From assembly GCA_963971425.1 (NCBI GenBank), contig OZ020521.1, positions 188,501 to 252,500 of the forward strand: a stretch of DNA of 64,000 nt, written 5' to 3'. Of the stretch, positions 9,002-49,670 are shown piece by piece. The DNA is from Bryoerythrophyllum caledonicum. Its lineage: Eukaryota; Streptophyta; Bryopsida; Pottiales; Pottiaceae. The position numbers and the translations under genes are program-made. The notes below the pieces were generated by a model, which saw only the letters and a list, made by a program, of their open reading frames with translations, ran no database searches and was not told the DNA's origin. How positions within the stretch are numbered: the stretch's first letter is position 1; every line of letters begins with the position of its first letter.

Positions 9002-9014
9002 CATGGTTGTCATA
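9002..9014 (+). repeat. Left TIR of hAT element 1
   Basis: CATGGTTGTCATA, one mismatch to the reversed right end. It follows the duplication GCCTAGAT at 8994-9001. Confidence 0.8.
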
Positions 9015-9095
9015 ACGGACGGGTTGAGGTGATCGGACGGGACAACTGGACGGGCGGTCCGGACGGCATGAACGGACGGTTCGGACGGATTGCCC
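9015..9095. repeat. Left subterminal CGGACGG repeats of hAT element 1
   Basis: The motif CGGACGG or GGACGGG occurs repeatedly just inside the left TIR, and again inside the right TIR at about 21868-21930. hAT transposases are known to bind short subterminal repeats, so these are the probable binding sites. That role is inferred. Confidence 0.6.
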
Positions 9096-9182
9096 GAAGT
9101 GCGCCCAGTAATTTTTGGCAAGTAAGAAATTTTTACTGTGATCGCCACGTCACATACGGACGTGTCACGCCACCATGGCACT

Positions 9183-9293
9183 AGGGCGCGGACGTCTCCA
9201 TGAGGGGCGGGGACGTCACAATGAGGGGCGGAGATGCCTCCGCTGGGGCGGGGACATTCCCGCCCCTCATGTAGGCGTCCACGCCCCTGCATC
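9183..9293. repeat. GC-rich repeat cluster 1 of hAT element 1 (left end)
   Basis: Several copies of GGGGCGGGGACGTC or GCGGACGTCTCC separated by short spacers. It is close to the left end and downstream of the transposase 3' end, so it is not a gene promoter here. Confidence 0.7.
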
Positions 9294-9504
9294 ATTGAGC
9301 GGATAGGCCTTAATGTCTGGAAGCAAAATCTGTTTATTACATTAAAAAGTATTACGATAAAACAACAATTCCCCAATCCCATACTTCCAAACCAAGTAAT
9401 ATCTTGTAGTTATCTAAGAAACCTTTTTCTCTCCTAGCTTCTTCTATGAATTATCACAACTCTCTTGATTTCGCCTACATATATGTAGTTACTTTTCTTG
9501 TCCT

Positions 9505-12500
9505 TTAATTATTCAAACGGCCCGATCTGCGCACTCCTTCGCTGGACGGGCCACCCATAACCGCATCTCGAAGGACGATATCATCATCATCTGGTGCCTC
9601 ATCGCAATCTGGACGGTTGTCATCATCAGCTCCTTCACCGCTCTCATCTGAGAATTCTCCATTGCTATTATCCGTAGTCCAAAAGCCCTCTATTTCAGAG
9701 TTGTCATTGCGAAGCTCGACGACTGTTTCACCATCGCAACGCGAGCGTCTGAATCTCTTTTGTCGATGTGCGTGAGGATCATCGCCGTCGGAATTTATGG
9801 TTGGGCCATTGGTAGGACGAATTTCTCGATTCGGAACAACAAACGCCGGAGTTGTTGAAGAGCGTCCTGGAACATACGTGTCCAAAAACGGTTGTACAAC
9901 CACGTTCGGATCTCGTACCCCTATTCCAAGGAGGGGACGTCTACGATGCCTTGAGGAGGATGCTTCGCCGTTGTTTCTTCCTTCACGGCCTCTAGCCGCT
10001 CCACGGCCTCTAGACCCTCCACGAGCATTAGTCCTTGCACTCGATTGTATATATTGACCCATTGGATGAAGAGGCGTCCTTGTAGCGGCCAAAGGGGGTC
10101 TGCCATTTCTGGTAGTAGTAGCGGAAGTGTTTAGACCCATCCCCTCAACGCCTACACTTTGTTGAAAAGGTCCATACATGGCATTCGCCTTTCTAGGAGA
10201 AGAGGAATTCCGGGAAGGCGGCGTTGGTATATTCTGGTCATTGATAACCGTAGGCAACACCACAACCGGAGATGGTTGTGGCTCAAGGTCCTCTGTGAAT
10301 GCAAAAGCATCATCGGGGTCTACATATTCCGGGTCAAAACGCTTTGGTTGATTAACAATCCTTTCATTTCTTCGAGTCGTCCCTACAATTGTTGTGTTTA
10401 CAACATTTGCGTTAGAGTCTCCTTGAACGACTCCAGTGCTATGAAATGATGCACCCATTCCAATAGAGTTCTCTTGGCCATACCGGTTTTCAACTGATGC
10501 TTGGTTGTTTCGAGTCGCAGTATTTACTGCGTTCTCTCCCGCTCCGTTGTTGTCGCCATCTCCATTTCCACCACCATAGTCTGATGGGGAATTATCCTCG
10601 TCGCGAACATTCCTGACATTGCCCCCCCCCGTTTCAGGCTCTTCAAGGTTAGTCACATTTGGGATGTCGCTCTCTGAGGGAGTAGACAAAGGTTGCACTT
10701 CATGAATGCCCTCATTTTGATGAAAATGAGGCGAAGGACTGCGACGAGGACTTTGATTCCAAGGTCCCCAACGACCTTGAGCCAATTCTTCTTCCACATC
10801 GTCATCATCTCCGTAATAGTTTCTCGTTTCCTCAAGATGATCGGCGCCTTCCGCCCAAAGATTAGGGTGTCCACGGTACTCCAGCGGAGTGCGGGGAGTT
10901 GCCATATTGTGCTCCTCCTCTTCCTCGGCTATCAACACATCAAATTCACGATTAGGTTCACCCACCGGGACCGGCCCTAGGGCATCTGGGTCGGAATCCT
11001 CCGAGTGAATATTCGCATCGTACCATTGAACGGGATCGGCCCCCGGTCTTTGTTGAAGGCATCGGCTATTGGTATAAATATACACCAATGACGCAGCCTT
11101 TTCTGCTGCTAATCGATTTCGGCTCTTGTTGTGGACAAACGAATACATACTCCAATTTCGTTCGCAAGAGCTAGCTGAACACGTAAGGGCTAGAATACGA
11201 ACAGCTATTTTAGACAATGCCTTGTCTGCGATCCTGGCCCACCATTGGTGGAGAAGAAGCTTTGTCTGGCGGATGTCAGATGCCTCGATAGGGCCATATG
11301 GTCCTGTGCCCTCCTCTTACTGTGTTAACTCATATTGGACGTCCTCATATGAGACTTCCAATACCTCCATCATTTTGCGAACAACCCGATTCAATGCTCT
11401 TTGTGCGATTCCGTCAGCCCTAAGCGCCACATTATCCTTGAGGTACGGATTCAAAAGAGCCCCGGCGTAGTGAACATCGGTGAAAACCATTTGCCACCGG
11501 GCATCAAAAGATTGCTCAAGAGTGGATGCTATGTCAACTCGTAGAGTAAAGGGTGACTCTCTCAAAGAGTACACGTGTTCTCGCAAATTATGCATCACGA
11601 GCCACGCACGACCCATGGCTGGTTCGCGGCCATCAAACACACGCAATGCCTTCAAAACATCCCCAGTCATGTGCACGTAATTCTGACATCGTTGCCAAAA
11701 GGCCACATCTTCGATGGTGAGCACCACATTACGCGCTGCGGTTGCTGCTTGCTCTCCATTTTGTTTGTTCCGTAGGGTTGCAAAGTAGTTTACAACACGG
11801 GGGTGGTCTTTCAACTGCTCCAACACTCCTTTGAGTCTCACCAATCGATCCAACATAAGGAAATTACAAGCAAAGCGGGTTTCAGTGGGCACTACAATAT
11901 GCAGGTTTGGACTCAACTCACGAAGTGTCCCCATTGTCGAATGGTGGTTTCTAATATATATGCACAATTTCTTTGCCCTCTCTATTAAATCTTTAAATTC
12001 TTGGACCTTCGCCCAATCTTCCAACATGAGATCCAATGCATGTGCCATGCACCCCTGCTTGTGAATGTGCGGGTATGTGAGAATAATATCATCCATCGCT
12101 CCAAGCATGTTGGGAGCATTGTCTGTACAAATCTGTGTCACATTCTTGGAACCCACCTTCTCAATGTAAACTTTCACTTGGTCCGCTATGTACCGCATGG
12201 ATTTCTTCTCACCACTGGTGTCTATGCTCCCCAAGAATACGTCACCAGTGGGGCACGACATCATTAAATTCATGAGGGGCCTCCGATGGACATCATCCCA
12301 ACCATCCGTGCATATCGACACCCCATAATTCTTGATGGCAAAACCAACTTTGGCTTCAATCTCTTTCTCAATTTGCAACCTCTTAGGTTCAATCAATCTA
12401 GTCCTCAACTGGTGATATGTAGGAGGAGTGTACTCAAACTTTGCCACAGATGTCGCCCTCACTGCATCGATGAACGCTTGATTTCGCGCCACATTAAAAG

Positions 12501-13047
12501 GCACATTCGCTTGATAGAAAAAAGTCGCCCACTTCTCATCAAGTTCCTTCCTCTTTGCAATGTTAAAAGCATCAAGCATCCGTTGTTGATGTAGTTGCCC
12601 AGATCTAGTGGAATTTGAGGCGGTAAGACCACCCGACACATGTTCGCGGTCGTTTCCTTCAGAGAGATTAGGCACTCCTTCCTGAGGCCCAGTTGTTACC
12701 CCACCCGCCACATTATTTTGAGCGTCGGATTGGCTTGAAGTATCAATAGTTGGTGCCCTCGATGGACCACCCGGGCCTGAATCTCCGCCATACATGTCCC
12801 CGCCCGTCATTCGTTGCGGAACAATGTTTCCACAATTGGCAAATCGACTTCGCACATAGGGAGGTAGGCTATGACAAATCGACCTCTCTGACTTGGCGCC
12901 GTATCCAAAGTGAGCGAACGCACGCTCACGTTTGTAGCTAAAAGTGTAGTTACAGAAAACACAACTCACTTTGCCCCCGTTGTCACCAAAATTGTACCAA
13001 GGTTCCCATTCTTTTGTTTGCTTCCTTTGACTTCCCATTGCATTCAC
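9505..13047 (-). pseudogene. hAT transposase (BED finger, DUF659-like core, hAT C-terminal dimerisation), one in-frame stop
   Basis: Reading leftward from ATG at 13047 (or 13038), the protein has an N-terminal BED-type finger (CVFCNYTF...AFAHFGY, about residues 30-50). A DUF659/RNase-H-like core follows with acidic catalytic candidates in ICTDGWDD and ICTDNAPNM. After TAA at 11317-11319 the same frame continues into the hAT dimerisation region with SSCERNWSMYSF, whose Glu is the third catalytic candidate. A long low-complexity, RGG-rich and acidic tail of about 500 residues runs to 9505. The total is near 1,180 codons, longer than usual for hAT because of the tail. A TATA box (TATAAAAG, minus, 13295-13302) and GC repeat cluster 2 lie upstream. 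Only the single stop separates it from a full frame. Confidence 0.85.
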
Positions 13048-13294
13048 GGCTTATGCCAAATAATGTGCAAGTCCCGTCTAAGCCAAAATCCGGGGCTAGT
13101 TATAGTATAGAATCAGGTAAAATTGTGAGGTCTGATAGCGCTGGTGCAATGCTTGAACCAATTTTTACATCACGTCAGCCGCACACCAGTGCCGCCTGCC
13201 ACCCAAGTAGACTCGCAAGGAGCTCAAACTGAATTGAGGTCCAAGGGATAGAGGCCAAGGTAACAAGCGTGAGGACAATCGGCCCTCCCCGAAC

Positions 13295-13302
13295 CTTTTA
13301 TA
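13295..13302 (-). promoter_or_regulatory. TATA box of hAT element 1 transposase gene
   Basis: TATAAAAG on the minus strand, about 250 bp before the ATG. The edge of the GC repeat cluster is about 35 bp further upstream. Confidence 0.6.
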
Positions 13303-13337
13303 CACGAGCCATGAACGGGTGGGACCTGAAGTGCCAA

Positions 13338-13602
13338 GGGCGGGGACGTCTCCGCCCTGCCCTGTTGTGGGGAGACATCCCCACCCCTACCGGGTAAGGG
13401 CGGGGACATCTCCGCCCCTCCCGGGTAAGGGCGGGGACGTCCCTGCCCCTGCACGGGTAAGGGCGGGGACGTCCCCGCCCCTGCACGGTAAGGGCGGGGA
13501 CGTCTCCGCCCCTGCCCGGGTAAGGGCGGGGACGTCTCCGCCCCACCAGGGCAGGGCGGAGACGTCCCCGACCTTACTTGGGTAGGGGCTGGGACGTCTC
13601 CC
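13338..13602. repeat. GC-rich repeat cluster 2 of hAT element 1 (transposase promoter side)
   Basis: About ten spaced copies of AAGGGCGGGGACGTC with the partner half TCCGCCCCTG, giving near-perfect palindromes such as GGCGGAGACGTCTCCGCC. It abuts the transposase TATA box. ORFs running through it are low-complexity artefacts. Confidence 0.75.
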
Positions 13603-13830
13603 CAACCCAGGAGAAGGAGGCCTTTGGGGCATTTTGGGTGCTTAGGCATTCCTCCTCTCCATGAGGAGGGTGGAGGTTTTAATATAGGGTACCTTATTTT
13701 TGGTTCCGACAAGATTGCGACGCACTTAAAATTAGATGCAAGTTATGTCTACGAAGGAAGGCTTTCGGGAAAGTACTACTTTTGTCCTTTGACCGCATGC
13801 TCTCCAATAATGAACACCTTTATTAGCTCC

Positions 13831-14592
13831 CTAATAAACCAAGTAGTGGATAGCATTGGAGCTATGCAAGTCCCCATCCATAACGGGTAGTGTAAGCCTC
13901 TAGTAGAATGTAATGTGCAAGTTCTCTAAATATATAATTTAAACACAATTGCCCCACAAAAGATTAGGAATGTACCACATACCATGAAAGCAAAAAAATA
14001 AACCAAGTAGTGGATAGCATGGGAGCTATGCAAGTCCCCATCCATAACGGGTAGTGTAAGCCTCTAGTAGAATGTAATGTGCAAGTTCTCTAAATAAATA
14101 ATTTAAACACAATTGCCCCACAAAAGATTAGGAATGTACCACATACCATGAAAGCAAAAAAATAAACCAAGTAGTGGATAGCATGGGAGCTATGCAAGTC
14201 CCCATCCATAACGGGTAGTGTAAGCCTCTAGTAGAATGTAATGTGCAAGTTCTCTAAATAAATAATTTAAACACAATTGCCCCACAAAAGATTAGGAATG
14301 TACCACATACCATGAAAGCAAAAAAATAAACCAAGTAGTGGATAGCATGGGAGCTATGCAAGTCCCCATCCATAACGGGTAGTGTAAGCCTCTAGTAGAA
14401 TGTAATGTGCAAGTTCTCTAAATAAATAATTTAAACACAATTGCCCCACAAAAGATTAGGAATGTACCACATACCATGAAAGCAAAAAAATAAACGAAGT
14501 AGTGGATAGCATGGAAGCTATGCAAGTCCCCATCCATAACGGGTAGTATAAGCCTCTAGTAGAATGTAATGTGCAAGTTCTCTAAATAAATT
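13831..14592 (+). repeat. 164-bp tandem repeat, about 4.6 copies
   Basis: The marker AACCAAGTAGTGGATAGCAT recurs at 13837, 14001, 14165, 14329 and (one change) 14493, spacing exactly 164 bp. The copies are almost identical, so the expansion is recent. A degenerate single copy of the same core is seen near 16408-16440. No coding potential is seen. Confidence 0.9.
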
Positions 14593-14697
14593 GTACCATT
14601 ACAAACAAAAAGGATATTTAAAACCATATAATGTTTAGAGCAAAAGTATTGTTCACAAAATTGATTTGCTACGACCTAAACCTTTAAATACTCCTAG

Positions 14698-15354
14698 TCA
14701 ATAGTAACGTTGGTGAAGGGCTCGTTCGGTCCTCCTCAGCCTACCACGTGCTTGTGCCTTTTTGCTCGCGACTTGGACGTGGGTTCCGTCGGAGTCATCA
14801 TCTGAACTTGACGTGTTAGTATCATAGCTAGGTGTGTCGTCTATCATAGTCATGAACTTGCCCAATCCACCTTCTGGATACTTGCGCCATCCCATTGGAA
14901 TTATTCCATTTTCAGGGCGAGGAATTTTTACCTTCCCCGGCATCGACTTCAAAGTGGACCAATCCACTATCTTGCCCAACTTCACCTCCGCATGAACACC
15001 CCGCGCAATGAAGAGATTTACTTCGTTGCGTTTGACGAATGGGACGTCATACAACACCTGGTAAACTTCGATGCATCGGTTTTTAAACGCCTCGTCGATG
15101 CAATGTTTCAAGTTTGCCTTGTGGAAGCGCCGGTGATAGTTGTGTCACGCCTCTGGGAAAGCCTTGTTGATGTGGCACCACTTGATGTAGTTCGCGCAAT
15201 CATCAAAACTCCATGGCTCCACTACGTCCTCCCAACCTCGAAAAGCCAACTTCTCGGGATTTCGAAGAACGTGCAACCGCTTCCGATGGGCGTTCCCCGC
15301 TCTTGCACGGGTCTTGTCACGCTCCTCCTTGGCCAATCGTCCGGATGAAGACAT
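14698..15354 (-). pseudogene. Short VDWSTL-domain protein of hAT element 1 (N-domain only), one nonsense codon
   Basis: From ATG at 15354 the product is about 218 codons and matches the first 200 residues of the RING gene at 16877-19161: KRLHVLRNPEKLAF, then RGWEDVVEPWSF, then EVKLGKIVDWSTL. It stops before any coiled coil or RING. A TGA at 15145-15147 replaces what is Arg in the long copy (PEERHS against PEA-stop-HN), a CGA to TGA change typical of methyl-CpG decay. The family is not one I recognise. GC cluster 3 lies upstream. hAT element 2 has the equivalent short gene at 41083-41715, intact. Confidence 0.7.
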
Positions 15355-15505
15355 GGTGTGCATGTGTGAATGCAAAATTCTGGCCTAGATGGACGAATGA
15401 GACCTCGCACAACGCCCACATCCAGCTCAATGAAGAGATGGTGGATAGCAGTATGCGAGGTGGGGACAAATGAGGTCCCCCTCCATTAAAATAGTAATCC
15501 GGTGG

Positions 15506-15675
15506 GGGCGGAGACGTCCCCGCCCCTACCCGGGTATGGGGTGGAGACGTCCCCGCCCCTGCCCGGGTATGGGGCGGAGACGTCCCCGCCCTGCCGGGTA
15601 TGGGGCGGAGACGTGCCCGCCCCTGCCCGGGTATGGGGCGGAGACGTCTCCGCCCCACCAGGGCAGGGCGGGGAC
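15506..15675. repeat. GC-rich repeat cluster 3 of hAT element 1 (short-gene promoter side)
   Basis: Five spaced copies of TATGGGGCGGAGACGTC with CCCGCCCCTGCCCGGG. It is about 150 bp upstream of the short gene on the minus strand. Only a weak TATA-like TATTTTAA (minus, about 15485-15492) is seen at its edge. Confidence 0.7.
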
Positions 15676-16876
15676 GTTTGCTTGTAAATTGGGGAGGGGG
15701 GGTTCGTCCCCACAAAACTTTCCAAGGAGGCGTTTGAGGCCACTCTTGCTTGGCCGAGGCACTCCTCATCTCCATGAGGCGGGTGCACAATTAAATATGG
15801 GGTGATTTATTTTTGGTTCCGACAAGATCCTAATGCACTTAAAATAACATGCAGATTATGTCTCGCCCTAGTTCTAGGGAGGAAGGCGAAATGAAAAGTA
15901 CAACTCTTGTACTTTGACGGCATGCTCTCTAATAAGGAACACCTTTATTAGCTCCCTATTAGTTTTGGAGCAAACATAAGAGTGTAGAAAATGATTTCCT
16001 TCCAAATTAAAAAAAAAATTCCTTGTCTTTAGTGGAAAATAACGCTTCAACTCAAGTCAAAGATTTTCACATATTGCCAAAAATATAACGGGCAAGGTAC
16101 CAAAAACAAAAACGTCTTACCACATAAAACTTAGAGATTTTAACTTTTTATACTTTTTATTTTTTCCACAACAATATGTGGTTTAGACCTTCATATTGAC
16201 CATAAATATACATCAATCTAAAACATATCAAGTATCTAAAAACTAAAACGTTACTTGCCCATTTTTTAGCTTCCACTACTAGCATAGTTGACTTGAATAA
16301 GGTACACCCTTTTTCTACCTCTAACAATTGGTGTATAAGGAACTAACATCATCCTAAACTACCATTAGTAATGGATTTAGGCCTTATCTAGTGCAAAAAT
16401 TTGATACCAAGCAGTGAATAGCATGGGAGCTATGCAAGCCTTTCAACCCGTGTGGTTAAAATTTATGAAATTTTGTGGGGACATTAACAAAGAAGTATTT
16501 ATTGTGATCCTACGGTTAGATGTAGAAATAAAAAGGTTTTGTCTCCCTTCTTAGGCATTATACTATAGCCGGGCAATTTTGAAGTGTTTTTGGTGCAAAA
16601 ATGCCTTGGTCCTTTAGGGATTAAAAATGTTTGGAGGTTTAAAACTTGTTCCACACCATTTTTTTTAATACAAATGCACAAATCCTTATGAGGCTTAAGC
16701 ACATCCATAATCACACAGATTAACACCACTATTATCAAGTAGAATGTAGACAGTACTATTCATATTTTTTTTTAGTATCCATAATGTAATACGAAAATGG
16801 GAAAATACATTAAACGCTAAAAGATGAAGCATTGTAAGAAAATTGTCTCTTGGCACCGCAAAAATAAAAAATACAC
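15676..16876. other. Non-coding spacer of hAT element 1, partly conserved in hAT element 2
   Basis: No credible gene is seen. From about 15995 to 16720 the sequence aligns in the same orientation with 39705-40400 of hAT element 2. Shared blocks include CTTGTCTTTAGTG, GGGCAAGGTACCAAAA and ATTTTGAAGTGTTTTTGGTG. Confidence 0.65.
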
Positions 16877-19161
16877 CTAGTCAATATTCATCGGGCTATT
16901 AGTAGTGCCACTCGCCCCTGCCTCGTTGTCGTGTGCCCCTATGTGCATAGGGAGGTCTTCATCTGAGTCCAATACAAGTCTACGAGACGCCGATCGTGTT
17001 CTCCTCGTTGGTCCATCTTCATCCAACATGGCCCTTAGGATTTGGGATTGCATGAGCTGGTCGAGCGCTTGCCGTGTCCCTGGACTGTGCACATCGAGCA
17101 AGAAGTCGATTCCGTCATTTTGGAAAATTTCTTTCCACTCTGATTCCGATAATTGTCTTAGTTCTTGCGGGTCTGGTTGGTCAACGTCGTGAGAAATGCA
17201 ATCCCCGTTGTCGTCTGTGATGCGAACTCCGTCAACGGCCCACAACCATTGCCGTGGATGAGGTCGGAAACGAAATTGCTCCCCGTTCTCGTCCCAATGG
17301 CCATTAGAGCATTGGTAGAAGAAATTCGTTTTCCTTGACCGTATTTGTCCATTAACGGGATCAAATTCTTGCACACCCGGACAATCTGCTCCGGGTCCCT
17401 TTCCCAACCCCACTCGTTTGAGAGGTGCATCTTATCCAACGAGTGCATCTTCAGTTTCCAGCTCCACACCAAATCTTTTCCCCACATATGTGATTGATCA
17501 TGAGCGTTCGTCACATTGAACTCCCAATGCGGGGGCATGTATGGAACTAATCCAAAAAGTTCATACAATCGCTCGTGAAAAGGGGCCTTGCACAATGAGC
17601 ACCGCCGGCGTACGACCATCAAGCTAATCAAACAAAATGGATGGTACAAGTGCTCACAAGTGCCTAGATGCATCCCACCTTCTGGACCAAATGGGTTTAG
17701 ACAAATTGAGCAAGTCGTACCGTCGGATACGAAGCTCGAAGGTTGTGGCGACAATAACATGGGTTTGCCCCGATGATCGAGGGTAGATGAAACCTCCTTT
17801 TTGAAATCCCATTTGTAACGGGACCAATCGATGGTTGTTTGCCCACCAGCGGTTTTCACCATCGCCATTTCATCCATCTTGAAAAGATCATCTACGAGGG
17901 CCCACGATGTCAAACCAAACACCCTCTCCTGGTTGTTTTCGGTATAGTTGTTGTCGATTTTTTGGAATTCCGCCACCAATTGTCGGGACCGATCGACCGT
18001 GAAGACGCATGCCAACTTCCATTGATAGTAATGTTCTACCAACACATCCAAGCGACTTTGTAGTCTTGAATTCTCTTCAAGCGCTTTAGCGAGCTCTTTG
18101 CCGCAGTCATCCCCCACACCCTCTTCTTTGTTGACCATAGCTTTGTCTGCGTTGGTAAGGGCCTCATCAAACGACAATGAATCGTCTTGGGTTGACACAT
18201 GTACAAGCACTTCTTCCTCCCGTCGTGGATTCCGATCTTCTGTGGTCATTGTACTAGTTTGAAGGGCAAGTCGGAGCTCCTCCATATCACGTCGTTGCTG
18301 GTCAATAACAATGTTTTTATCATTGACATCAACTCTCAACTTGCGAACCTCATCGCGCAATGACAATAGTTCTGTTGTCTTCCCTTCCAATTGGTTCAGC
18401 AAGGTTTGGATAGTGTTGGCAAAAATAGCACCAGTAGAGGCTTCTAACGTTTGATCAACAACCGTGGGGGATTGTACCTGAGCCCCAACTTCATTAAGAG
18501 TATTGTTAACGACTACGCTAACCGTTTGTTCTGCCCTCCTTCGTTTGGTGCGCGCTTGTGTCCTTTGGCTCCTTATGATTGGAACGTGGGATCCGTCAGA
18601 GTCTGTATCCGTGTTTGAAGGATCGGTCTCGTACGTGTCGACCGGTTCAGTCTTTGCCATCGATTTGTCCAATCCGCCTTCTGGATACCTCCGTGTCTCC
18701 ATTGGAATCAATCCATTCGCCGGAGAAGGAACTCTTATGCTATCTCCTATGGCTTTCAAGGTGGACCAATCCACCCTCTTGCCCAACTTTACCTCCGCAT
18801 GAACACCTCGTGCAAGGAAGAGATTTACTTTGTTGCGTTTGATATAAGGGATGTCGTACAAGACCTGGTATACTTCAATGCACCGATTTTTGAACGCCTC
18901 GTCGGTGCACTTCCATAAATTTGCCTTGTGAAAGCGTCCGTGATAACTGTGTCGCTCCTCCGGGAAAGCCTTGTCGATATGGCACCACTCGATGAAGTTT
19001 GCGCAATCCTCAAAACTCCATGGCTCCGGAACTTCTTCCCAACCTTTAAAAGCCAATTTAACAGGATTCCGAAGTACATGCAACCTCTTCCGCTGCTTGT
19101 TTCCCGATCGTAGTCGACTCTTGTCTCGTTCTTCTTTATTCGTTTTTACCGGCGTGGCCAT
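16877..19161 (-). pseudogene. Long VDWSTL-domain / coiled-coil / RING-H2 protein of hAT element 1, one frameshift
   Basis: From ATG at 19161 (MATPVKTNKEERDK) the protein has the N-domain (about residues 15-190, with KGWEEVPEPWSF and KRVDWSTL), then a Ser/Asp linker, then a coiled coil around residues 260-450 rich in Leu and Glu. A RING-H2 finger follows near residues 480-530: CSIC, then CEHLYHPFC, then CSLC. RING-H2 proteins are usually ubiquitin E3 ligases, so this is a candidate E3. The frame shifts by one base near 17335: the - strand frame ending at 17158 gives way to the frame ending at 16877, which holds NFFYQCSNGHW, homologous to MFFYQTLGWHW in element 2. An alternative upstream ATG exists at 19290. 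It is divergent with the kinase gene across GC cluster 4. Confidence 0.75.
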
Positions 19162-40500: not shown

Positions 40501-40502
40501 GG

Positions 40503-40660: not shown

Positions 40661-40676
40661 TGGTCGGGCAGAGTGC

Positions 40677-40683
40677 TATAAAG
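40677..40683 (+). promoter_or_regulatory. TATA box of the short gene in hAT element 2
   Basis: TATAAAG next to the GC cluster, 400 bp before the ATG at 41083. The leader could contain an intron. Confidence 0.55.
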
Positions 40684-41082
40684 GGGGAGGGAGAAAATTT
40701 TGCAGGCACACTTTTCCACGAATCCTGGGCACCCTGACGCACTTGCCTCCACGTTGACGGCGGTGTGCGGGGTTTCCAGGTGGGTCCGTGGTCCTCTTGA
40801 GGACGGAGATTACCCGAAAGGGGATTTTTAGTCCTCAGATACATCAGCACAGGTACAGAATATTTTGAAGTTGTCAGAGATTTGACGAAGCCGAGTATTT
40901 AATACTTTTTTTCCATCTCTTAACAGCACTATTTCGAAGTGCTTGCATGGGATTTATTGTAGCACTATTTTGAAGTGCAATTAGTTATAGGCGGCATAAT
41001 CATATTAGAATAGTTAGCTAGTATTAGAAAAGCAATTAGAAGTATTTCGTAGTGGTTTAGGTTTGTTTGAAACATTTTCACC

Positions 41083-41715: not shown

Positions 41716-42355
41716 AGGTGCCTCCTCGTCGCGCTCCGGATATGGAATGTAAATAATGCGTACTAATTCGGCATATGTGTTTCACGAGGCGAATTTCAAA
41801 TAGTTTAGGTGCCTAAAGTCGCAAAATCAATTACCTATTTAGTAGAAAAAAATGAAGTTGTGTACATGTGTACAAGTTTCTACTTGATTTTGAGAAAAAA
41901 AATATAGAGAACTCCCATCTACTAGAGGCAATTTTCCCAACCCTCTTTACGTGTTCTTCAAAAAACCTTATAAGTTCTTCTAGAGCACACATTGCACGAC
42001 CATTGTAAAAAATGAAATTTGATGTGCAAGTATTGTTTTAAAGGCTTACTTTCTTGTATTCATTGTCGATTTTTTTTTTTTTTTTTTTTTTTTTGATGTA
42101 TTAATTCCCTTGAAGACTACACCGTTCCTTGAGTATAGTGTTGAATATAGTGTAGACCAGACTATTTGAAATTTCCTACACTAATTGAAAATTTACATGC
42201 AATTGTTGACTGACACACACTTGCTTGAGAATAAATACCCAATCAGAACCTGGCATGCACATGCTTTTATGGAAACTAGTGTGAGTGATTTCGTGAATAA
42301 TCCCTCTACACTATATTCAGTGTTTAGTGTACTGGACTAGGGGTTAGTGGGCTAG
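41716..42355. other. AT-rich spacer of hAT element 2
   Basis: Contains a pure T run of about 25 bases at 42069-42094. Otherwise nothing recognisable. Confidence 0.5.
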
Positions 42356-42357
42356 GA

Positions 42358-42920
42358 CTGGGCGCGCTGACGGGTTGCGGACTGAGCGAGGACAGTTCGC
42401 GGATAGGGCGCGAACTGGGAGCGGACGGTTTAGACAAACTGGGAGCGGACGGTTTAGACAATCTGGGAGCGGACAGGGATCGGACTGGGAGCGGACGAGG
42501 ATCGGACTGGGAGCGGACGGGGATTGGACTGGGAGCGGACGGGGATCGGACTGGGAGCGGACGGGGATCGGACTATGAGCGGACAGTCCGCGGACTGCCC
42601 GCGGATAGGGAGCGGACGGGGATCGGACTGGGAGCGGACAGTCCGCGGACTGCCCGCGGATTGGGAGCGGACGGGGATCGGACTGGGAGCGGACAGTCCG
42701 CGGACTGCGCGCGGATTGAGAGCGGACGGGGATCGGACTGGGAGCGAACAGTCCGCGGATTGCCCGCGGACTGGGAGCGGAGAGTCCGCGGACTGCCCGC
42801 GGATTGGGAGTGGACGGGGATCGGACTGGGAGCGGACAGTCCGCGGACTGGACGCGGGCAGTCCGCGTCCCGTCCGCGGGCTGGGCAGGGAATGTCCACG
42901 GACGGGACGCGGACGGGGTG
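42358..42920. promoter_or_regulatory. GC-rich repeat cluster 3 of hAT element 2 (RING promoter), about 560 bp
   Basis: The largest cluster before a gene. Repeats of GGGAGCGGACGGGGATCGGA (18-20 bp apart) alternate with CAGTCCGCGGACTGCCCGCG. ORFs across it on both strands (Arg/Ser/Pro repeats) are artefacts. It ends next to TATAGAAA at 42928-42935, a TATA-like box. Confidence 0.7.
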
Positions 42921-43369
42921 CACATGTTATAGAAAGCGGAAAGGGCCCATGGCTTGACACTTTCTTAGTCCTAGAAAGCCTTGACGCACTTGCCTCCACG
43001 TTGACGGCGGTGTGCGGGGCTTCAAAGAGGGAAAGTGCTCCTTTTGAGGACCTTCATTTTCCCAAGGGGAGATGTTTGTCCTCAGAAGCATCTGTTTTTT
43101 CACTATTATAGGCGATGGTTATGCCAACGGTGGGGTTTCAGCAATCTATCCAAGCATGGAAACAATATTTTGAAGTGCATGCTTCAATTTGTAGCCTGGG
43201 CAGCACTATTTTGAAGTGCAGGAAGTCTTCAGATTTTTGGAATAGAGCAGTTGTTCTAGAATTTTTGTATAATTTTTGTATGATAATAGGTAATGTGGGA
43301 GAGGAAATAGATATTATTGTAAGTAACTTTTCTGATACGGGAATCTGTAGAAGACTTTAGAAGAATTTC

Positions 43370-45604
43370 ATGATGGAAAGCGGAGGTGGTGTTCAAGGAG
43401 CACAGAGGATGATGGTGGACAAACCAAGCGAGGAGGGTTTTACAGTGAAAAGGACAAAGAGGAACCCAACAGATTTGGAGCTGGAGGTATACGCAAATCG
43501 TGATCTTCAAGCAAAGGAGGGTTGAGAATCAGTGCATGAGCCATGGACAGCCGACAGTGCATTGGAGTACATCAAGTTTGCGCATCTCGACAGATGGTGG
43601 CCTGCGGAGCTCCACCCTAAACATTGTGCAGCGAGAGCAGTCACGTACAGACAGATCAATGACGTGCATGTGAAGTGGAGGTTCCTCGAGATCTTACGTG
43701 CCATTTCTAACTTGGAGAAATGGCCTAAGAATAATATTCCTAGATCCATTGCAGCATTGATGTATGTAGAATATCAATTAGGGAAGGAAGTGGATTGGTC
43801 AACGATTCACGACCCCTTTTCAGGTGGTCGGAGACTTGGACGCCATCTTTCAGCAAAGAAACCTCGAGAGATTCCAAGAAACAATGCCCCTCAATGGTTC
43901 CTTGATAACCCTACTTTGTACGACGATCCAAATGATGAAGTGCCGTTCAATCGAGAAATATTTGTTTCGCCAAGGAATAGTAGCGGTCGAAAGCGTAGAG
44001 AAAGGAAGGTTGAAGACACTCATTGCAAAGAATTGGACAAGCATGCCCCAAACGAGATTGGGGAGGGGTCAAACCCACTTTCAGAAACTTTGGAGATGGC
44101 CAATGCTATTCAAAGCAAAGCCGCTGACGCCCCGATGAAGTTTGATGAAGATAAGTATGGTGAGTTACAAGCACAATTGGAAGTGCTTAGTGTGGAGATA
44201 AAGAGGTTGCAACATGGACGAGACGATGATGTGCAAACGGTGTCAAAAGTACTTGCGCTAGAGATAGAGAAGAAGAACTTGCTTGCTGAAGTGACCCATC
44301 TACGCAATCAAGTCAATCAAGTCAACGATAGTAATGAAAAGTACATGATTGAAGTTGCAGACTTAAAGAGGGAACTACAAGAAATCAAGGCACAACATGT
44401 AGCAACGGAGATGACGCATGCAGGTTTGCAACAAGAGTTGGATGAATCAAAAGCATATCGGGAGAATGAAGAATCGGCCCGAAACAATCTTAAATTATTG
44501 GTTTCAACAATAATCGATGAGCGCGAAGAGATGATGATCACAACGTTATTCGCTGTGGCACGGACACGGCAATACGAGGCGGAATTCCAGAGTATATGCG
44601 CTGAATGGACATCGGAGAAGAAGTTAAGGACCCTTTTGCTCACATCATGGCCTCGTGATGAAACCATGTATCCAATCAGCTGGGACGATAGTGATCCGTC
44701 GGTACTATTGAACAACAATAGTATTGATTGGAGGCTTGTAACAGAAGAGGATCACCGTTGGGACATTGAAGAAGTGCATGATCATCCAACTGAAATGATT
44801 GGAAAGCCGTTGTGGCAAAGACCACACCCCATGACATCCGACGGATCATCATGTCCTACCTGCGATAATCCTTGGGGTCCTGAAGGGTGTTATATGATTG
44901 GATCGTGTGGCCATTTGTTCCATCCGCATTGTCTAATCAAGAGTATGATTCGTTCGCGTACTTGTGGTGTATGTAGGGCGCCATTACATCCACGTTTGTA
45001 TCTTCAATTTGGCCTACGGGATATCATGCCAAGTCACTGGGTGTATCGTCAAGATGATTATGACTTTGCACTTGAAGACTTCAATGGGAACCCTGTTGAG
45101 TGGAGTTGGAGACATAATATGTCCAAGGCACAACTGTGACATACCTTTCAAGGGGAAGAATTGTTAGATGATCCGGACAAACTAGTACATGCAGCAAACG
45201 AGATGTATCCTGACAAACCGGCAGATTACGGCATGAAGATGTTTTTTTACCAGACCCTAGGGTGGCATTGGAATCGTCAAAGAAACGAATTGGCGCACGG
45301 CTTAGGACCGCCACCATATTACAACTCATCTGGCGAGCGAGCTGTGGGGGATCTAGAACTACGAAGGGCTTATCGTGATACAACACTACCTGCAACCACT
45401 GGAACGGAGGAATTGTATTGGGAAGAACGCTACCATCAAAAACGACTACTTGTGGCGGCGCTAGATGCCATTTTGGAAGACGTCGCCCCGGAGGTGAAGG
45501 AATGGCTTAATGGTGGGGAGATACCTCGATATCGGCAAGGCCATGGACGTCATGGATATCGAACGCGGAGTAATGTTCGTGCAAGAGATGCTGCAAGAGC
45601 TTAG
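43370..45604 (+). pseudogene. Long VDWSTL-domain / coiled-coil / RING-H2 protein of hAT element 2, two nonsense codons
   Basis: The reading frame begins MMESGGGVQGAQ at 43370. TGA at 43523-43525 replaces the Trp of the conserved GWE motif (G-stop-E). The N-domain follows (EPWTADSALEYI, KWRFLEILRAIS, LGKEVDWSTI), then a basic linker, then a clear coiled coil at about residues 260-430. The RING-H2 finger lies near residues 494-540: CPTC, CGHLFHPHC, CGVC. A second TGA at 45137-45139 precedes a 3' part (DDPDKLVHAANEMYPDK, MFFYQTLGWHW) that is homologous to the end of the hAT element 1 gene. Candidate ubiquitin E3 ligase by family. The downstream part is in frame, so only the two stops break it. 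Confidence 0.75.
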
Positions 45605-45935
45605 AGCACCATATTAATTTGTGGAAGTGAAGGATTAAAGATTCAGTAAACTATGACCAAGTCTAATTTCCCGATTGAATTAGTGTAATCAAAGCTCTTA
45701 TGTTGTTATCTTTGACATTACGAACATGGAATTCACAGTGAGTTATACACAACGGGATATTTTTTACCCATTTTGAATGCATTTATATCGAGGTTCAAAT
45801 TTGGACATTACCGTTCTCACATTGCCAAAACTTGTAGTTACACGGCGACCTTGTTGTCTCCCCCAAACCCCACCCCTACAGCAACGGCAGTTGCAAAGAG
45901 CAATTCAAAGGAGAAAAACGACGCCCATTCAGCGG
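45605..45935. other. Spacer between RING and kinase genes of hAT element 2
   Basis: No gene is seen; ordinary base composition leading into GC cluster 4. Confidence 0.45.
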
Positions 45936-45937
45936 AC

Positions 45938-46240
45938 AGGCCGCGGGCAGTCCGCTGCTAGTCCGCGGGCAATCCGCTGCCAGTCCGCGGGCAAGTCCGC
46001 GGTCAGTCTGCGGGCAATCAGTTGCCAGTCCGCGGGCTCTTTCAACCCAATCCGCGCCCCGTCCGCGGGCAGTCCGCGGGCAATCCGCTGCAGTCCGCGG
46101 GCAATCCGCTGCAGTCCGCGGGCAATCCGCTGTCAGTCCGCGAGCAAGTCCGCGGGCAGTCCGCGGGCTCTTCCAACCTAATCCGCGCCCCATCCGCGTC
46201 CAGTCCGCGCCCCGTCCGCTCCCCGTCCGCGCGGTTCTCC
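45938..46240. promoter_or_regulatory. GC-rich repeat cluster 4 of hAT element 2 (kinase promoter)
   Basis: Copies of GCAGTCCGCGGGCAATCCGC and CCGTCCGCG-type repeats. It ends about 45 bp before TATATAAAGG. Confidence 0.7.
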
Positions 46241-46283
46241 AGGTTCCCAACCCTATCCGCAATGTTCCCGACCCCTTGCAGCC

Positions 46284-46293
46284 TATATAAAGG
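46284..46293 (+). promoter_or_regulatory. TATA box of the kinase gene in hAT element 2
   Basis: TATATAAAGG, the best TATA match of the element, 219 bp before the ATG at 46512. Confidence 0.7.
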
Positions 46294-46511
46294 CAGATAG
46301 GCCATTGACGACCTCACTTTTTTCCCTCCATTTCCTTGCCCAATAGGAACCCGAGACCTTGTTGCGCGAGCACCATTGCACGGGTTTCGAGGGTATAGGA
46401 GTTGGGAAAGACGAATGCGGAGGTAACCCTTGTCATTTTTTTCCAGACTCACTCACTTTCGCACTGCACTTTAAGTGACCGGTTTAAGTGACCGGTAACT
46501 ACTTTACAGGA

Positions 46512-48464
46512 ATGGCCCATAGCAGGGTGCATTATCAAGATGCAGACATGCAACTCCACGAGGCTCATCAGGTGGAAATTCAATCAACCACTACTGCAGC
46601 CGATCGTGTGAGTGGTGGTATGTTGGCGAGAGGACAAGGTAGTGGAAGTGGGCGAAGTGACGGGGGTCGCAGGCACGGCATGGAAGAACTGCACCAAGAA
46701 TTTCATGCACTTGGACGAAATAATTCTCGTGGGTCGCAATCATATTTACGAGGCGCAGTAGGATCTCGAAGGGTTCCACGAGGATCAGCGCGGGGGACCA
46801 CAGAAGGAGGGCGGTCACGAGGATCTCAAAGTTTGAGCGGATTTCGACACCCGGGAGCTCGCAGTTCAGGCGGATCGAGTGGTGAGCCCGCAGTAGGAGA
46901 GCCATCGTTGAGGGCCGTTCAACATGGTGCGGTACCATCTGCAACAAATTCCTTGGTTCCAAACGAACCTTCAGTTGGAGCGGGACAAGGGCGGGATAAA
47001 CGGCCTGTTTTTTTAGAGGACTCAGAGCCCTACAAGAAAAGAGCAAGGACAAGCCATTTGGATGCAATGAGCAAGGAATTTAAGTGCAGGGTTGTAGCGG
47101 ATATATTATTTTGGATGATAGAGAAAGGTCTATCCAAGTTGGAGAAACGGTACTTGTGTAACGGCGCTACAGGACTAGAAGCTATGGAGGCAAGATTGAT
47201 ACTCATTATCCAAAATATTGCCAATGAAGTAAATTTTCGCGAAGATAAATTGAGACATTCAATGGATACATGGCCCAGCTTGTTTGCCAAACAAGCTATT
47301 CACAACCCCGTGAAGACTATTTGGGATGTCTATTACAAGGAAGATGTAAGCGAACAAGCAATGGAAGTGAAGTTATTGTTTGAGAGACTCAAAGAGCGGG
47401 TAGAAGCAATCAAGCCGAAAGGGAGAACTAACCTCGCTATTCCTTGGATTGATCAAGATTTGGTTGTGCGAGTTGCGAGTAGAGGTCGTGAAGGTGTAGT
47501 GTGGCTTCCAATGCATGCGGAGGTAAAGGCGTTGGATACTAGAAATTATGAAGGAGGCTTTGGAGTTGTCCGTTGTGTGAGTATTGACGGTGTAAGTTGC
47601 ATTCCAGCACACATGGAGTTTGCGGGGAAAACAATGAAGGAGGATAGTCGTGAAAAAAACCGAGAGAAACGTTCAATTGAGGCGTTAGCATGTCCAGTGG
47701 ACCATGCAGGGGTTATCAAAATCCAGTACCTGGATAGAAGAACATACGAGTCGTATACTCTATGGTGGAACGGTGGCTCACTAGCATCTATTTGGAGGAT
47801 CGATTCAAAATATGAGGAGGAACACGAAGATGATATTCTTAAAACAGCTGGAATCGACCTTGAGGCTCGTATGGAACTATGCGTGTATCGTAAAAATCGG
47901 GCCTATTTAGCATGGGCACTACTCTGCATCATGGATGTGATACATTCCCAGCGCATTTTGCACAACGACTTGAGCCCCAACAATGTTATGCTTCATTTTC
48001 CGCAAGAGAAAAAAGATGTAGTGTTCATCGGGGTGTGTGATTGGGGAATGGCATCATGGGACGGCGAAGACAAGATGTCAAACTACGGTCGACCCTCTAG
48101 TACAGAGCTCGGTGCTTTCCGAGCTAAGTATCGTCATGCTGCCCCCGAGCTATTCCATGTATATGGGAAGCCCGGAACACCAACGTCACCGAGGAGAATG
48201 GGAATAAAGCATAAGCACAACCATAGATCTGAGGCGTATGCAGTGGGGTACTTGGCAAGGAGGATCTACAACCGCGATTGCTCTTCAAGCTTGTTCCAAA
48301 AGAACAAAGATCCGAGTTCATTGTCCAAGCGATTTGAGCAAGCCATGGACGAGTTGTTGAAACCCGATCCACTAGAGAGATCAATTGTCACGCATGTAGT
48401 AGACTTGTTGAAAGGACCGCCCTACAACCTAGCTATACCATGGGATTTCTTCCGCAATGAGTAG
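46512..48464 (+). CDS. Divergent protein kinase, cargo of hAT element 2
   Basis: An intact 650-residue frame from ATG 46512; the frame also runs upstream to a GTG at 46488, but ATG is preferred. TTACAG just before the ATG may be a 5'-UTR intron acceptor. The first 190 residues are Gly/Ser/Arg-rich and likely disordered. A region with KFKCRV-type and NGATGLEAME blocks follows, then the kinase domain: GGFGVVRCV, Lys in FAGKTM, HNDLSPNNVMLHF (Asp about 485), CDWGMASW (about 509), HAAPELF (a proper APE) and EAYAVGYLARRIY. It matches the hAT element 1 kinase across the domain, including YTLWWNGGSLASIW against YTLWWNGGSLASFW. Catalytic residues are complete. Confidence 0.85.
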   Translation: MAHSRVHYQDADMQLHEAHQVEIQSTTTAADRVSGGMLARGQGSGSGRSDGGRRHGMEELHQEFHALGRNNSRGSQSYLRGAVGSRRVPRGSARGTTEGGRSRGSQSLSGFRHPGARSSGGSSGEPAVGEPSLRAVQHGAVPSATNSLVPNEPSVGAGQGRDKRPVFLEDSEPYKKRARTSHLDAMSKEFKCRVVADILFWMIEKGLSKLEKRYLCNGATGLEAMEARLILIIQNIANEVNFREDKLRHSMDTWPSLFAKQAIHNPVKTIWDVYYKEDVSEQAMEVKLLFERLKERVEAIKPKGRTNLAIPWIDQDLVVRVASRGREGVVWLPMHAEVKALDTRNYEGGFGVVRCVSIDGVSCIPAHMEFAGKTMKEDSREKNREKRSIEALACPVDHAGVIKIQYLDRRTYESYTLWWNGGSLASIWRIDSKYEEEHEDDILKTAGIDLEARMELCVYRKNRAYLAWALLCIMDVIHSQRILHNDLSPNNVMLHFPQEKKDVVFIGVCDWGMASWDGEDKMSNYGRPSSTELGAFRAKYRHAAPELFHVYGKPGTPTSPRRMGIKHKHNHRSEAYAVGYLARRIYNRDCSSSLFQKNKDPSSLSKRFEQAMDELLKPDPLERSIVTHVVDLLKGPPYNLAIPWDFFRNE

Positions 48465-48711
48465 TATATAGTATATTGTGATTTCATAGTCCTTAGATAC
48501 TGTAGGGTATGTAGCATCTTCTCTATGTTGTGAAGTGTTGTCTAATTTGTATTCGGTTATTTGAAAGAAGAGAATGCCTTTTTGGACTTCCCTGTAATTT
48601 TGAATGAAGAACAACTTTGTACAAATTGTTTTGAATTGGTCTCCCAATCCGCCCTTTGTATCTTCAGAAATAAAAATGGAATAACTAAATAAAAAAATAT
48701 CCTAACTACCA

Positions 48712-49395
48712 TATCCGCGCTCCCCCACTCCCAATCCGCGTTGCATTGGCGCCCCCACACCTAGGCCGGTGCGAGTCCGCGATCAGTCCGCAGCCAGTCC
48801 GCGGCAGTGACCGCGATCAGTCCGCACAAGTGTCCGCAGCCAGTCCGCGGCAGTGTCCGCATCCAGTCCGCGGGTCTGCACTCAATCCGCGGGTCCCCAT
48901 CCAGTCCGCTGCGTATCCGCAGCCAGTCCGCGGGTCCACATCCAGTCCGCTACGTATCCGCGGCAGTGTCCGCGGCCAGTCCGCGATCAGTCCGCGGCAG
49001 CGTCCGCAGCCAGTCCGCGGGTTTCCATCCAGTCCGCTGCGTATCCGCAGTCAGTCCGCGGGTCCACATCCAGTCCGCTACGTATCCGCGGCCAGTCCGC
49101 GGTAGTGTCCGCAGCCAGTCCGCGATCAGTTCGCAGCAGCGTTTGCAGTCAGTCCGCGATCAATCCGCAGCAGCGTTTGCAGCCAGTCCGCGATCAGTCC
49201 GCAACAGCGTTTGCAGCCAGTCCGCGGGTACATATCCTGTCCGCTGCGTATCCGCAGGCAGTCCGCGGGTCTGCACTCAGTCCGCGGGTCCAAGTTCAGT
49301 CCGCTGCGTATCCGTAGCCAGTCCGCGGCAGTGTCCGCACGCAGTCCGCGGCATGTCCGCGGACGGTCATCGCATGTCCGCGTGCAGTCCGCTCC
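48712..49395. repeat. GC-rich repeat cluster 5 of hAT element 2 (right end), about 680 bp
   Basis: Dozens of copies of CAGTCCGCGG, GTCCGCAGCCAGTCCGCG and CGGGTCCACATCCAGTCCGC. No gene follows it before the right TIR 260 bp away. ORFs in it are repeat artefacts. Confidence 0.75.
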
Positions 49396-49589
49396 TAAAC
49401 TGCTCCCTCTGAAAAACCCCCCAACTTAATTGATTTTCACTCAAAGGTTAATACAACACAGCAAAGGATAAAAGTGGTGAGAGACACGTAGGATGTCAAT
49501 GCCACATAGGACGGCCACGTCGACGCCAAGGTAACATATGTACCATACATAGGGTTAAAGTTCAGCTTTGACCCTAGGTTGACTCTATT

Positions 49590-49670
49590 GTGTCGTGACG
49601 AGAGGGTCCGTCACGACAGGTCACGTCATGACGGCACGTCACTGTCACAATGTCACGATAGACAACCCTG
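49590..49670. repeat. Right subterminal repeats and right TIR of hAT element 2
   Basis: TGTCGTGACG, GTCACGACAGG and TCACGTCATGACGG motifs precede the reversed TIR ATAGACAACCCTG. Confidence 0.75.

What the first reader, a model, noticed from the sequence alone, without database searches (positions are those of the whole stretch)
9002..49670. Two giant hAT transposons sharing a four-gene cargo of transposase, VDWSTL-domain protein, RING-H2 protein and kinase
Seen: two elements of 12-13 kb with matching 13-bp ends (CAGGGTTGTC[A/T]TA), 8-bp duplications and the same four gene families. Known: hAT elements normally encode one transposase, sometimes one extra ORF. Inference: these form a family of large, gene-carrying hAT elements in which a putative E3 ligase and a kinase travel as standard components, not as accidental captures, since two diverged copies keep all of them.
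Basis: partly seen in the sequence, partly recalled or inferred. Interest (0 to 1): 0.92.

Follow-up and report, generated by a model that had tools for sequence, protein, structure and literature searches.

The report
Giant gene-carrying hAT transposon families
This genome holds large jumping genes of the hAT kind that, besides the enzyme that moves them, carry a protein kinase, a ubiquitin-ligase-like protein and a related short protein, with a repeated DNA signal near their ends and in front of their genes, as if each element ran its own small regulatory circuit.

Summary
The finding holds up. Both elements are hAT transposons: E1 9002-21945 (12,944 bp, perfect 8-bp duplication) and E2 37329-49670 (12,342 bp with an assembly gap, duplication 7 of 8). 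E1's family is abundant: of 13 convergent end pairs 8-15 kb apart on part of contig C1, 12 hold the same four gene families (transposase, V-only, V-coiled-coil-RING, kinase) in one order. Of 20 kinase copies sampled from the 83 best genome-wide, 20 lie 677-935 bp from the element's right end. E2 is a second family: 230 left ends, 223 right ends, its kinase in 5 of 8 further 10-14 kb elements probed.

Corrections: the V ("VDWSTL") gene is a paralogue of the RING protein's N-terminus; the families' ends share only CAGGGTTGTC; in the window all genes but E2's V-only and kinase carry damage.

New here: each family has its own noncoding motif (E1 GGCGGRGACGTCYCCGCC, E2 AGTCCGC), clustered near the ends and before the genes. 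In 14 E1-type copies 159 of 159 sites avoid coding matches. The layout resembles VANDAL/VANC anti-silencing elements, so I propose a self-regulated or anti-silencing giant hAT; that function is inference. The V domain matched nothing in Pfam or PDB. RING linkage in further E2 copies, and distant kinases, could not be tested.

The parts
9002..21945 (.). Element E1, giant hAT, 12,944 bp, 8-bp duplication GCCTAGAT on both sides
   Evidence: same layout in 12 other copies
9505..13038 (-). E1 transposase, 1,177 codons: BED-like finger (by eye), DUF659, hAT dimerisation domain, long low-complexity tail; one in-frame stop at 11317-11319 in this copy, a sense codon in the 13 other copies aligned there
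14716..15330 (-). E1 V-only gene (VDWSTL domain alone); one in-frame stop here, 218-aa open frame in T09, T11, T15, T29
16877..19161 (-). E1 V-coiled-coil-RING gene (754 aa in copy T15); here in two frames, by inference an insertion near 17.2-17.4 kb; RING at 17590-17712
19634..21184 (+). E1 protein kinase, 516 aa here, 526 aa in copy T11; K, HND, DWG motifs present
13339..13572 (.). E1 motif array GGCGGRGACGTCYCCGCC (up to 1 mismatch), 7 sites, upstream of the transposase
15507..15654 (.). E1 motif array, 5 sites, upstream of V-only
19341..19412 (.). One E1 motif site and related repeats in the divergent RING/kinase promoter gap
21617..21741 (.). E1 motif array, 4 sites, right subterminal region; only a degenerate version at 9184-9225 near this copy's left end
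37329..49670 (.). Element E2, giant hAT, 12,342 bp including a 200-N gap, flanks GAGGACCA/CAGGACCA
   Evidence: family of 230 left and 223 right ends
38023..39146 (+). E2 transposase remnant: BED-like finger (by eye), in-frame stop at 38374-38376, DUF659, then a 200-N gap; dimerisation domain not found
41083..41715 (+). E2 V-only gene, 210 aa, open; predicted all-helical fold, mean pLDDT 81
43370..45604 (+). E2 V-coiled-coil-RING region; open pieces 43526-45139 and 45140-45604 with an in-frame stop before and between them; a metagenome relative (P0036) is 84% identical and 732 aa long
46512..48464 (+). E2 protein kinase, 650 aa, open
37637..37836 (.). E2 motif array AGTCCGC, 8 sites, left end / transposase promoter
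40522..40605 (.). E2 motif array, 4 sites, upstream of V-only
42377..42866 (.). E2 motif array, 14 sites, upstream of the RING gene
45949..46208 (.). E2 motif array, 12 sites, upstream of the kinase
48774..49392 (.). E2 motif array, 27 sites, right subterminal region

Best explanation
SHOWN: two families of giant hAT transposons in one genome. Their full-length form is a package in fixed order: hAT transposase, a V-only protein, a V-coiled-coil-RING protein and a protein kinase (12 copies for E1; for E2 the window copy, with the kinase alone seen in 5 others). Each family has its own repeated noncoding motif, clustered in the subterminal regions and in front of the genes. INFERRED: the transposase cuts and pastes at CAGGG-type ends with 8-bp duplications. 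One element-encoded DNA binder (transposase finger or V domain) reads the family's motif both at the ends and at the promoters, so that transposition and expression are under one switch. The RING protein, an E3 ligase by its ligands, is brought there by its V domain and marks a protein for removal, most likely a host silencing factor, or else the element's own transposase. The V-only protein, a truncated paralogue, competes with it and damps the circuit. The kinase switches one of these partners. The net effect would be sequence-specific escape from silencing, or copy-number control, as VANC does for VANDAL elements.
For: Family and package: 13 convergent pairs at 8-15 kb against 0.42 expected at random, maximum 4 in 2000 draws; 12 of the 13 hold all four gene families, with duplications perfect in 7, one mismatch in 3, two in 2; 20 of 20 kinase copies next to the right end; E2 ends 230 and 223 against 0 control hits, 37 convergent left/right pairs against 2 in other orientation among the 100+100 listed places, kinase in 5 of 8 probed. 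Regulation: 159 of 159 E1-motif sites in 14 copies are outside coding matches although these cover 61% of the DNA; 20 shuffled patterns gave 0 hits in 4 copies where the true one gave 118; E2 motif 65 sites in 5 clusters, 0 in E1, 3 in the rest of the window; E1 motif 0 in E2 and 0 in the rest. Function kept: kinase K, E, HND, N, DWG columns invariant or nearly so in 10 aligned sequences, 8 of them relatives; six RING cysteines kept in all 9 aligned; E1-E2 synonymous sites saturated while proteins align (pN/pS 0.45/0.84 kinase, 0.49/0.80 RING, 0.37/0.93 transposase); within-family NG86 median ratio 0.48 RING, 0.51 kinase, 0.58 transposase, off-frame controls 0.58-0.89. Precedent: VANC binds family-specific motif arrays in noncoding DNA (PMC5735166, passages; PMC10398659, abstract and outline).
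Against: No expression, methylation, binding or enzyme data. Within-family variation is only mildly third-position biased; the reverse-frame-1 control is close to the true frame for the transposase (0.597 against 0.575); against the most diverged copy T33 the ratio is 0.60 transposase, 0.42 RING, 0.61 kinase, and 0.74 for the kinase domain alone, which is inside the off-frame range. So much of the divergence is decay after insertion. The first RING histidine is replaced in 3 of 9 aligned sequences (P0042, P0045, P0047; P0045 also lacks the second) and in P0043 and P0044, so the ligase may be altered in some relatives. Subterminal repeats are usual in hAT elements (Tol2 has them, PMC8151067 passages; others recalled), so arrays at promoters could be spread of end sequence. 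V domain: no evidence of DNA binding, no fold match. 6 of 14 E1-type copies show four, not five, clusters at this stringency. 3 of 8 probed E2 elements gave no kinase hit in the 1 kb read, and the two E2-ended elements read in full have none of the genes.
Confidence: 0.52

Rival explanations
1. Neutral passengers: a founder element captured linked host genes once and its descendants copied them along without any role in transposition.
For: Many copies carry stops and frameshifts in cargo; most variation within the family is decay; kinase-domain ratio against T33 is 0.74.
Against: Cargo ratios are about the same as the transposase's; catalytic and most zinc-binding residues survive the E1-E2 split and in metagenome relatives; motif arrays sit before the cargo genes as well as before the transposase.
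Confidence: 0.23
2. Self-limiting circuit only: RING and kinase act on the element's own transposase to keep copy number down, not on host silencing.
For: The V-only paralogue beside the RING protein looks like a competing short form; one motif at ends and promoters suits autoregulation.
Against: Neither target is known; family-specific, tandemly grown arrays resemble VANC targets.
Confidence: 0.2
3. Independent captures: the two families each took the same kind of host kinase and RING genes.
For: Only 26-34% identity between the families' cargo; in the V-domain tree E1's two V genes are sisters, whereas E2's V-only is not sister to E2's RING copy.
Against: Same gene set in the same order, same V-coiled-coil-RING fusion, same unusual kinase motifs, transposases also homologous at 45%.
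Confidence: 0.07
4. Virus-derived element that adopted a hAT transposase.
For: Kinases and RING proteins are common in large DNA viruses (recalled).
Against: No viral hallmark among the 10 ORFs scanned with Pfam; a kinase profile found no relative in the viral contigs (RING and V not searched there); hAT ends and duplications.
Confidence: 0.02

Closest known systems
hAT superfamily DNA transposons (Ac, Tam3, Tol2, Hermes)
   Same: DUF659 and hAT dimerisation domains, 8-bp duplications, short terminal repeats, subterminal repeats
   Different: 10.5-14 kb instead of a few kb (Tol2 about 4.7 kb); transposase of about 1,180 aa with a long tail; three further conserved genes; motif arrays also in front of the genes
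VANDAL elements with VANC anti-silencing proteins (Arabidopsis)
   Same: Family-specific short motifs in tandem arrays in noncoding regions, differing between related families; accessory genes beside the transposase
   Different: hAT not Mutator-type transposase; no VANC-like domain found; kinase and RING instead; arrays also in the subterminal regions; anti-silencing not shown here
Starship giant transposons (fungi)
   Same: Large eukaryotic elements that carry genes
   Different: No tyrosine recombinase found; a fixed small gene set rather than variable cargo
ToxhAT / ToxTA (fungi)
   Same: A 14-kb gene-carrying class II element once called hAT
   Different: ToxTA has 2-bp TA duplications and 74-bp ends and is argued not to be hAT (PMC12506042, passages); the present elements meet the hAT criteria

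Membership tests
hAT superfamily | 8-bp target-site duplication | tested here: met
   12 four-gene copies from 8-15 kb pairs: 7 perfect, 3 with one and 2 with two mismatches; over all 17 convergent pairs fetched 9 perfect, 14 with at most two mismatches, 3 not matching; E1 perfect, E2 7 of 8; two E2-ended elements perfect
hAT superfamily | Terminal inverted repeats of 5-27 bp | tested here: met
   13-bp ends in E1, E2. The 17 pairs were chosen by exact ends, so they do not test this on their own; the 20 kinase copies were not and have the right end. Criterion from PMC12506042 (passages)
hAT superfamily | hAT transposase domains | tested here: met
   DUF659 3e-37 and Dimer_Tnp_hAT 2e-6 in E1; DUF659 6e-34 in E2
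hAT superfamily | Catalytic acidic triad, CxxH and RW | tested here: inconclusive
   Candidate strings DGWDDV, CTDNAP, CMAH, ARWQ, CERNW located in E1; labels recalled, not aligned to a solved transposase
VANDAL/VANC system | Mutator-type transposase | tested here: not met
   Transposase is hAT; a weak MULE hit (E 0.19) is below cut-off
VANDAL/VANC system | Accessory protein of the VANC family | tested here: not met
   No Pfam family hit in the V domain of V/RING members; that VANC has a Pfam family is recalled; no direct comparison with a VANC sequence was made
VANDAL/VANC system | Family-specific motif arrays confined to noncoding regions | tested here: met
   model from PMC5735166 (passages)
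VANDAL/VANC system | Protein binding to the arrays and loss of DNA methylation | not testable with these tools
   needs binding and methylation data
RING-H2 E3 ligases | C3H2C3 zinc ligands | tested here: met
   Full set in E1 (17590-17712) and E2; in relatives six cysteines kept in 9 of 9 but first histidine lost in 3 of 9 and in P0043, P0044; 13 of 15 members match zf-RING_2 at E<=0.01, best 4e-9; window copies below Pfam cut-off
RING-H2 E3 ligases | Ubiquitin ligase activity | not testable with these tools
   needs an assay
Eukaryotic protein kinases | Catalytic Lys, HxD and DxG | tested here: met
   FAGK, HND, DWG kept in both window kinases; in the alignment one relative has HNN and one DWA; Pkinase in Pfam, E1 just under cut-off
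Starship | DUF3435 tyrosine recombinase | tested here: not met
   absent among the 10 ORFs scanned

The most novel reading that the evidence does not exclude
A hAT lineage that became a self-governing genetic system: a DNA-binding V domain of a new fold reads a family-specific code at the element's ends and promoters, brings a ubiquitin ligase there to destroy a host silencing factor, and is tuned by a truncated V-only rival and an element-encoded kinase. As far as I know (recalled, not searched in full) it would be the first transposon to counter silencing by targeted ubiquitination and phosphorylation, with reader and code co-evolving between families.
Probability: 0.28. Interest if true: 0.9.

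Novelty: new variant of a known kind. Interest (0 to 1): 0.72.

Why it matters
hAT elements are usually described as one-enzyme parasites. A lineage that keeps a kinase, a RING protein and a domain with no match in Pfam or PDB as fixed parts, with one DNA code at ends and promoters, would show that cut-and-paste transposons can evolve regulatory or counter-defence modules of their own. Each family supplies hundreds of ends and E1 supplies dozens of gene copies, so binding, methylation and excision can be tested directly. The ends also mark the elements for annotation, where such kinase and RING genes could otherwise be counted as host gene families.

Tried and rejected
Considered and dropped: (1) a conserved, read-through stop in the transposase: the stop is only in the window copy; the 13 other copies aligned there have a sense codon, T23 not covered. 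(2) An intron between RING and its C-terminal part: frames are continuous in T11 and T15, so the window copy most likely has an insertion. (3) Viral origin: no kinase relative in viral contigs. (4) A bacterial source suggested by a relative named from a Bacilli MAG (P0003, 2-kb contig): the kinase profile found no relative in bacterial/archaeal genome contigs, where contigs under 3 kb are not held; more likely a contaminant. (5) Strong purifying selection inside the family: weaker than the raw ratio suggests once off-frame controls are made, and the kinase domain against T33 shows none. (6) Fold match for the V domain: none (whole protein, where the RING part alone drew weak RING matches; V-only and 75/78). 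(7) In one search the E2 RING region was read from a start two bases off, so that part of its output is void; frames for it are.

Odds changed on checking: best explanation from 0.55 to 0.52 and neutral passengers from 0.20 to 0.23, because of the T33 kinase-domain ratio; novel case from 0.30 to 0.28, because of the lost histidine in some RING relatives.

Led nowhere: kinase and RING protein searches for E2 and the RING search for E1 in the own genome; RING windows in further E2 elements; naming the organism. Papers: searches listed (listings only) nothing describing hAT elements with a kinase and RING cargo; searches failed. Subscription papers and preprints are mostly not in that library, so absence there is weak.
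Full report
WHAT IS THERE. The window lies in a 437-Mb genome of 894 contigs at C9:188501-252500. E1 spans 9002-21945 and E2 37329-49670. E1 has a perfect 8-bp duplication; E2's matches in 7 of 8 positions and sits in a degenerate tandem repeat. Pfam finds DUF659 in both transposases and the hAT dimerisation domain in E1, RING in both RING proteins and Pkinase in both kinases; the RING scores and E1's kinase score are just below Pfam's cut-offs. In E2 a 200-N gap follows DUF659 and the dimerisation domain was not found. The gene order is the same in both elements: transposase, V-only, V-coiled-coil-RING, kinase. In E1 the first three point left and the kinase right; in E2 all point right.

E1 IS A FAMILY. 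The exact 13-base end occurs 807 times in the genome against 9 for the reversed control. Among the first 100 places listed (C1, 1.65-38.6 Mb) there are 13 convergent pairs 8-15 kb apart, 1 divergent pair, and 0.42 expected at random, maximum 4 in 2000 draws. I fetched all 17 convergent pairs of 0.5-20 kb from that list. Of the 13 pairs at 8-15 kb, 12 hold transposase, V-only, V-RING and kinase matches in one layout, 10.5-14.0 kb long. Their duplications are perfect in 7, one mismatch in 3, two in 2. The thirteenth (T31) has no genes, a 200-N gap and no duplication. Of the other 4 pairs, T37 (17.3 kb) has all gene families but no matching duplication, T39 (18.9 kb) has a perfect duplication, lacks the kinase and keeps only parts of the RING gene, T36 (3.7 kb) is a deletion derivative with a perfect duplication, and T35 has no genes and no duplication. 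In the genome search 83 kinase copies were scored (of 2285 first-look candidates), all 91-100% identical to E1's. From these I took every fourth row from row 2, 20 of 21 such rows (the last left out): 20 of 20 have the right end (27-30 of 30 bases) 677-935 bp beyond the kinase. The left ends of these 20 were not read.

E2 IS A SECOND FAMILY. Its left end has 230 copies and its right end 223 (up to 3 mismatches), with 0 control hits for each. Pairing the 100 listed left ends with the 100 listed right ends gives 37 convergent pairs within 25 kb and 2 in other orientation. Lengths run from 0.5-1.6 kb (14 pairs, MITE-like) through 2.9-8.9 kb (8) and 10-14 kb (9, the window copy among them) to 18-24 kb (6). 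In the 8 others of the 9 I read one 1-kb stretch each where the kinase should be: 5 hold an E2-type kinase, 92-99% identical and in the expected orientation, 3 gave no hit. Two E2-ended elements read in full (found in 15-kb stretches beside two listed left ends) were non-autonomous: 1,104 bp and 9,204 bp, both with perfect duplications, neither with the genes. So E2 is real and its kinase recurs, but gene-less derivatives are common and RING linkage outside the window copy is untested.

STATE OF THE GENES. Open frames of full or near-full length exist among the copies: V-only 218 aa in T09, T11, T15, T29; V-RING 754 aa in T15; kinase 526 aa in T11. In the window E1's transposase and V-only each have one in-frame stop, its RING gene lies in two frames, and its kinase lacks the last 10 residues; E2's transposase and RING genes have in-frame stops, its V-only and kinase are open. 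None of the 17 sequences scanned (T31 and T35 left out) shows all four genes as full-length frames.

ONE CODE PER FAMILY. In E1-type copies the motif GGCGGRGACGTCYCCGCC (at most 1 mismatch) falls in four (6 of 14 copies, the window's among them) or five (8 of 14) clusters: the subterminal regions, the transposase promoter, the V-only promoter and the RING/kinase promoter gap (in T37, which runs past a normal length, the last cluster follows the kinase but not the copy's outer end). All 159 sites in 14 copies lie outside the coding matches, which cover 61% of the DNA; 20 shuffled patterns gave no hit in the 4 copies tried, the true pattern 118 on both strands. In E2 an unrelated motif, AGTCCGC, occupies the matching places: 65 sites in five clusters. 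E1 has none of E2's motif, E2 none of E1's, and the rest of the window has 0 of E1's and 3 of E2's; no shuffle control was made for the E2 motif. Leaders are also repeated between genes of one element (E2 40732-40845 and 42979-43092, 78%; E1 13644-13750 and 15757-15863, 80%).

CONSERVATION. Relatives of the proteins are almost all from unnamed metagenome or ENA contigs: 35 for the kinase, 14 for RING (both E<=0.001), 26 for the transposase (E<=1e-10). The only hit bearing a eukaryote's name is from the moss Ceratodon purpureus (kinase, 29% over 77%). Kinase catalytic residues are kept with single exceptions (HNN in P0009, DWA in P0021). The six RING cysteines are kept in 9 of 9 aligned proteins, but the first histidine is replaced in 3 of 9 and in P0043 and P0044. 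Between E1 and E2 synonymous sites are saturated while proteins align. Within the E1 family the median NG86 ratio is 0.58 transposase, 0.48 RING, 0.51 kinase over 91 pairs of 14 copies; off-frame readings give 0.58-0.89, and third positions are only mildly richer in changes. Against the most diverged copy, T33, it is 0.60, 0.42 and 0.61, and 0.74 for the kinase domain. The fair reading is that cargo is constrained about as much as the transposase, over a strong background of decay. In a V-domain tree E1's two V genes are sisters (100/100), whereas E2's V-only does not join E2's RING copy, so the short form either arose more than once or was homogenised in E1. The V-only model is confident (mean pLDDT 81) and all-helical, with no Foldseek hit at E<=0.001 and no VIA hit among the 15 chains compared.

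HOW IT MIGHT WORK. Shown: package, mobility marks, family-specific arrays. Inferred: common control by one binder; the RING protein as an E3 ligase; V-only as competitor; the kinase as switch; host silencing as target. The nearest precedent in layout is VANDAL/VANC, where VANC proteins bind short motifs arrayed in noncoding regions and different families use different motifs (PMC5735166, passages; PMC10398659, abstract and outline). By membership these are hAT elements, not VANDALs. hAT criteria (8-bp duplication, ends of 5-27 bp) are taken from passages of PMC12506042; Tol2 as a yardstick of a usual hAT (about 4.7 kb, 649-aa transposase) from passages of PMC8151067.

VERDICT. Observation confirmed, interpretation supported for E1 and partly tested for E2, with the regulatory code as an added finding. 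I rate it a new variant of a known kind. Seven paper searches (listings seen) showed no description of such elements; two more failed.

Noticed in passing
window 2832-9149, 22655-26286, 35616-37374: Long, degenerate purine-rich tandem repeats open in several frames; E2 is inserted inside one such array, E1 begins at the edge of another.
   Followed up: no
window 30012-34660: ORFs reading like a Ty3-type LTR retrotransposon polyprotein (protease, reverse transcriptase, integrase strings read by eye).
   Followed up: no
window 570-1937, 60363-60863, 61660-62652: ORFs that read by eye like Mutator-type transposase with a SWIM finger and a Ulp1-like protease.
   Followed up: no
window 39581-40369 and 15988-16624; C4:23827780-23836983: A noncoding stretch of the gene-less E2-ended element F63 is about 80% identical to stretches of both E2 and E1; perhaps a small nested repeat.
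   Followed up: partly
C4:23827780-23836983 (L063): A 9,204-bp E2-ended element with perfect duplications has no open frame of 120 aa and an inner 1.2-kb inverted repeat, 94% alike.
   Followed up: partly
window 13833-14624: Tandem array of a 164-bp unit, 90-99% alike, between transposase and V-only in E1.
   Followed up: no
window 40920-40979 and 43156-43220: Short repeats around CACTATTTTGAAGTGCA, hairpin-like by eye, in the leaders of E2's V-only and RING genes.
   Followed up: no
G000, E2-type ends: 14 of 37 paired E2 end pairs are only 0.5-1.6 kb apart, a MITE-like swarm beside the giant form; one of them, read in full, is 1,104 bp with a perfect duplication.
   Followed up: partly
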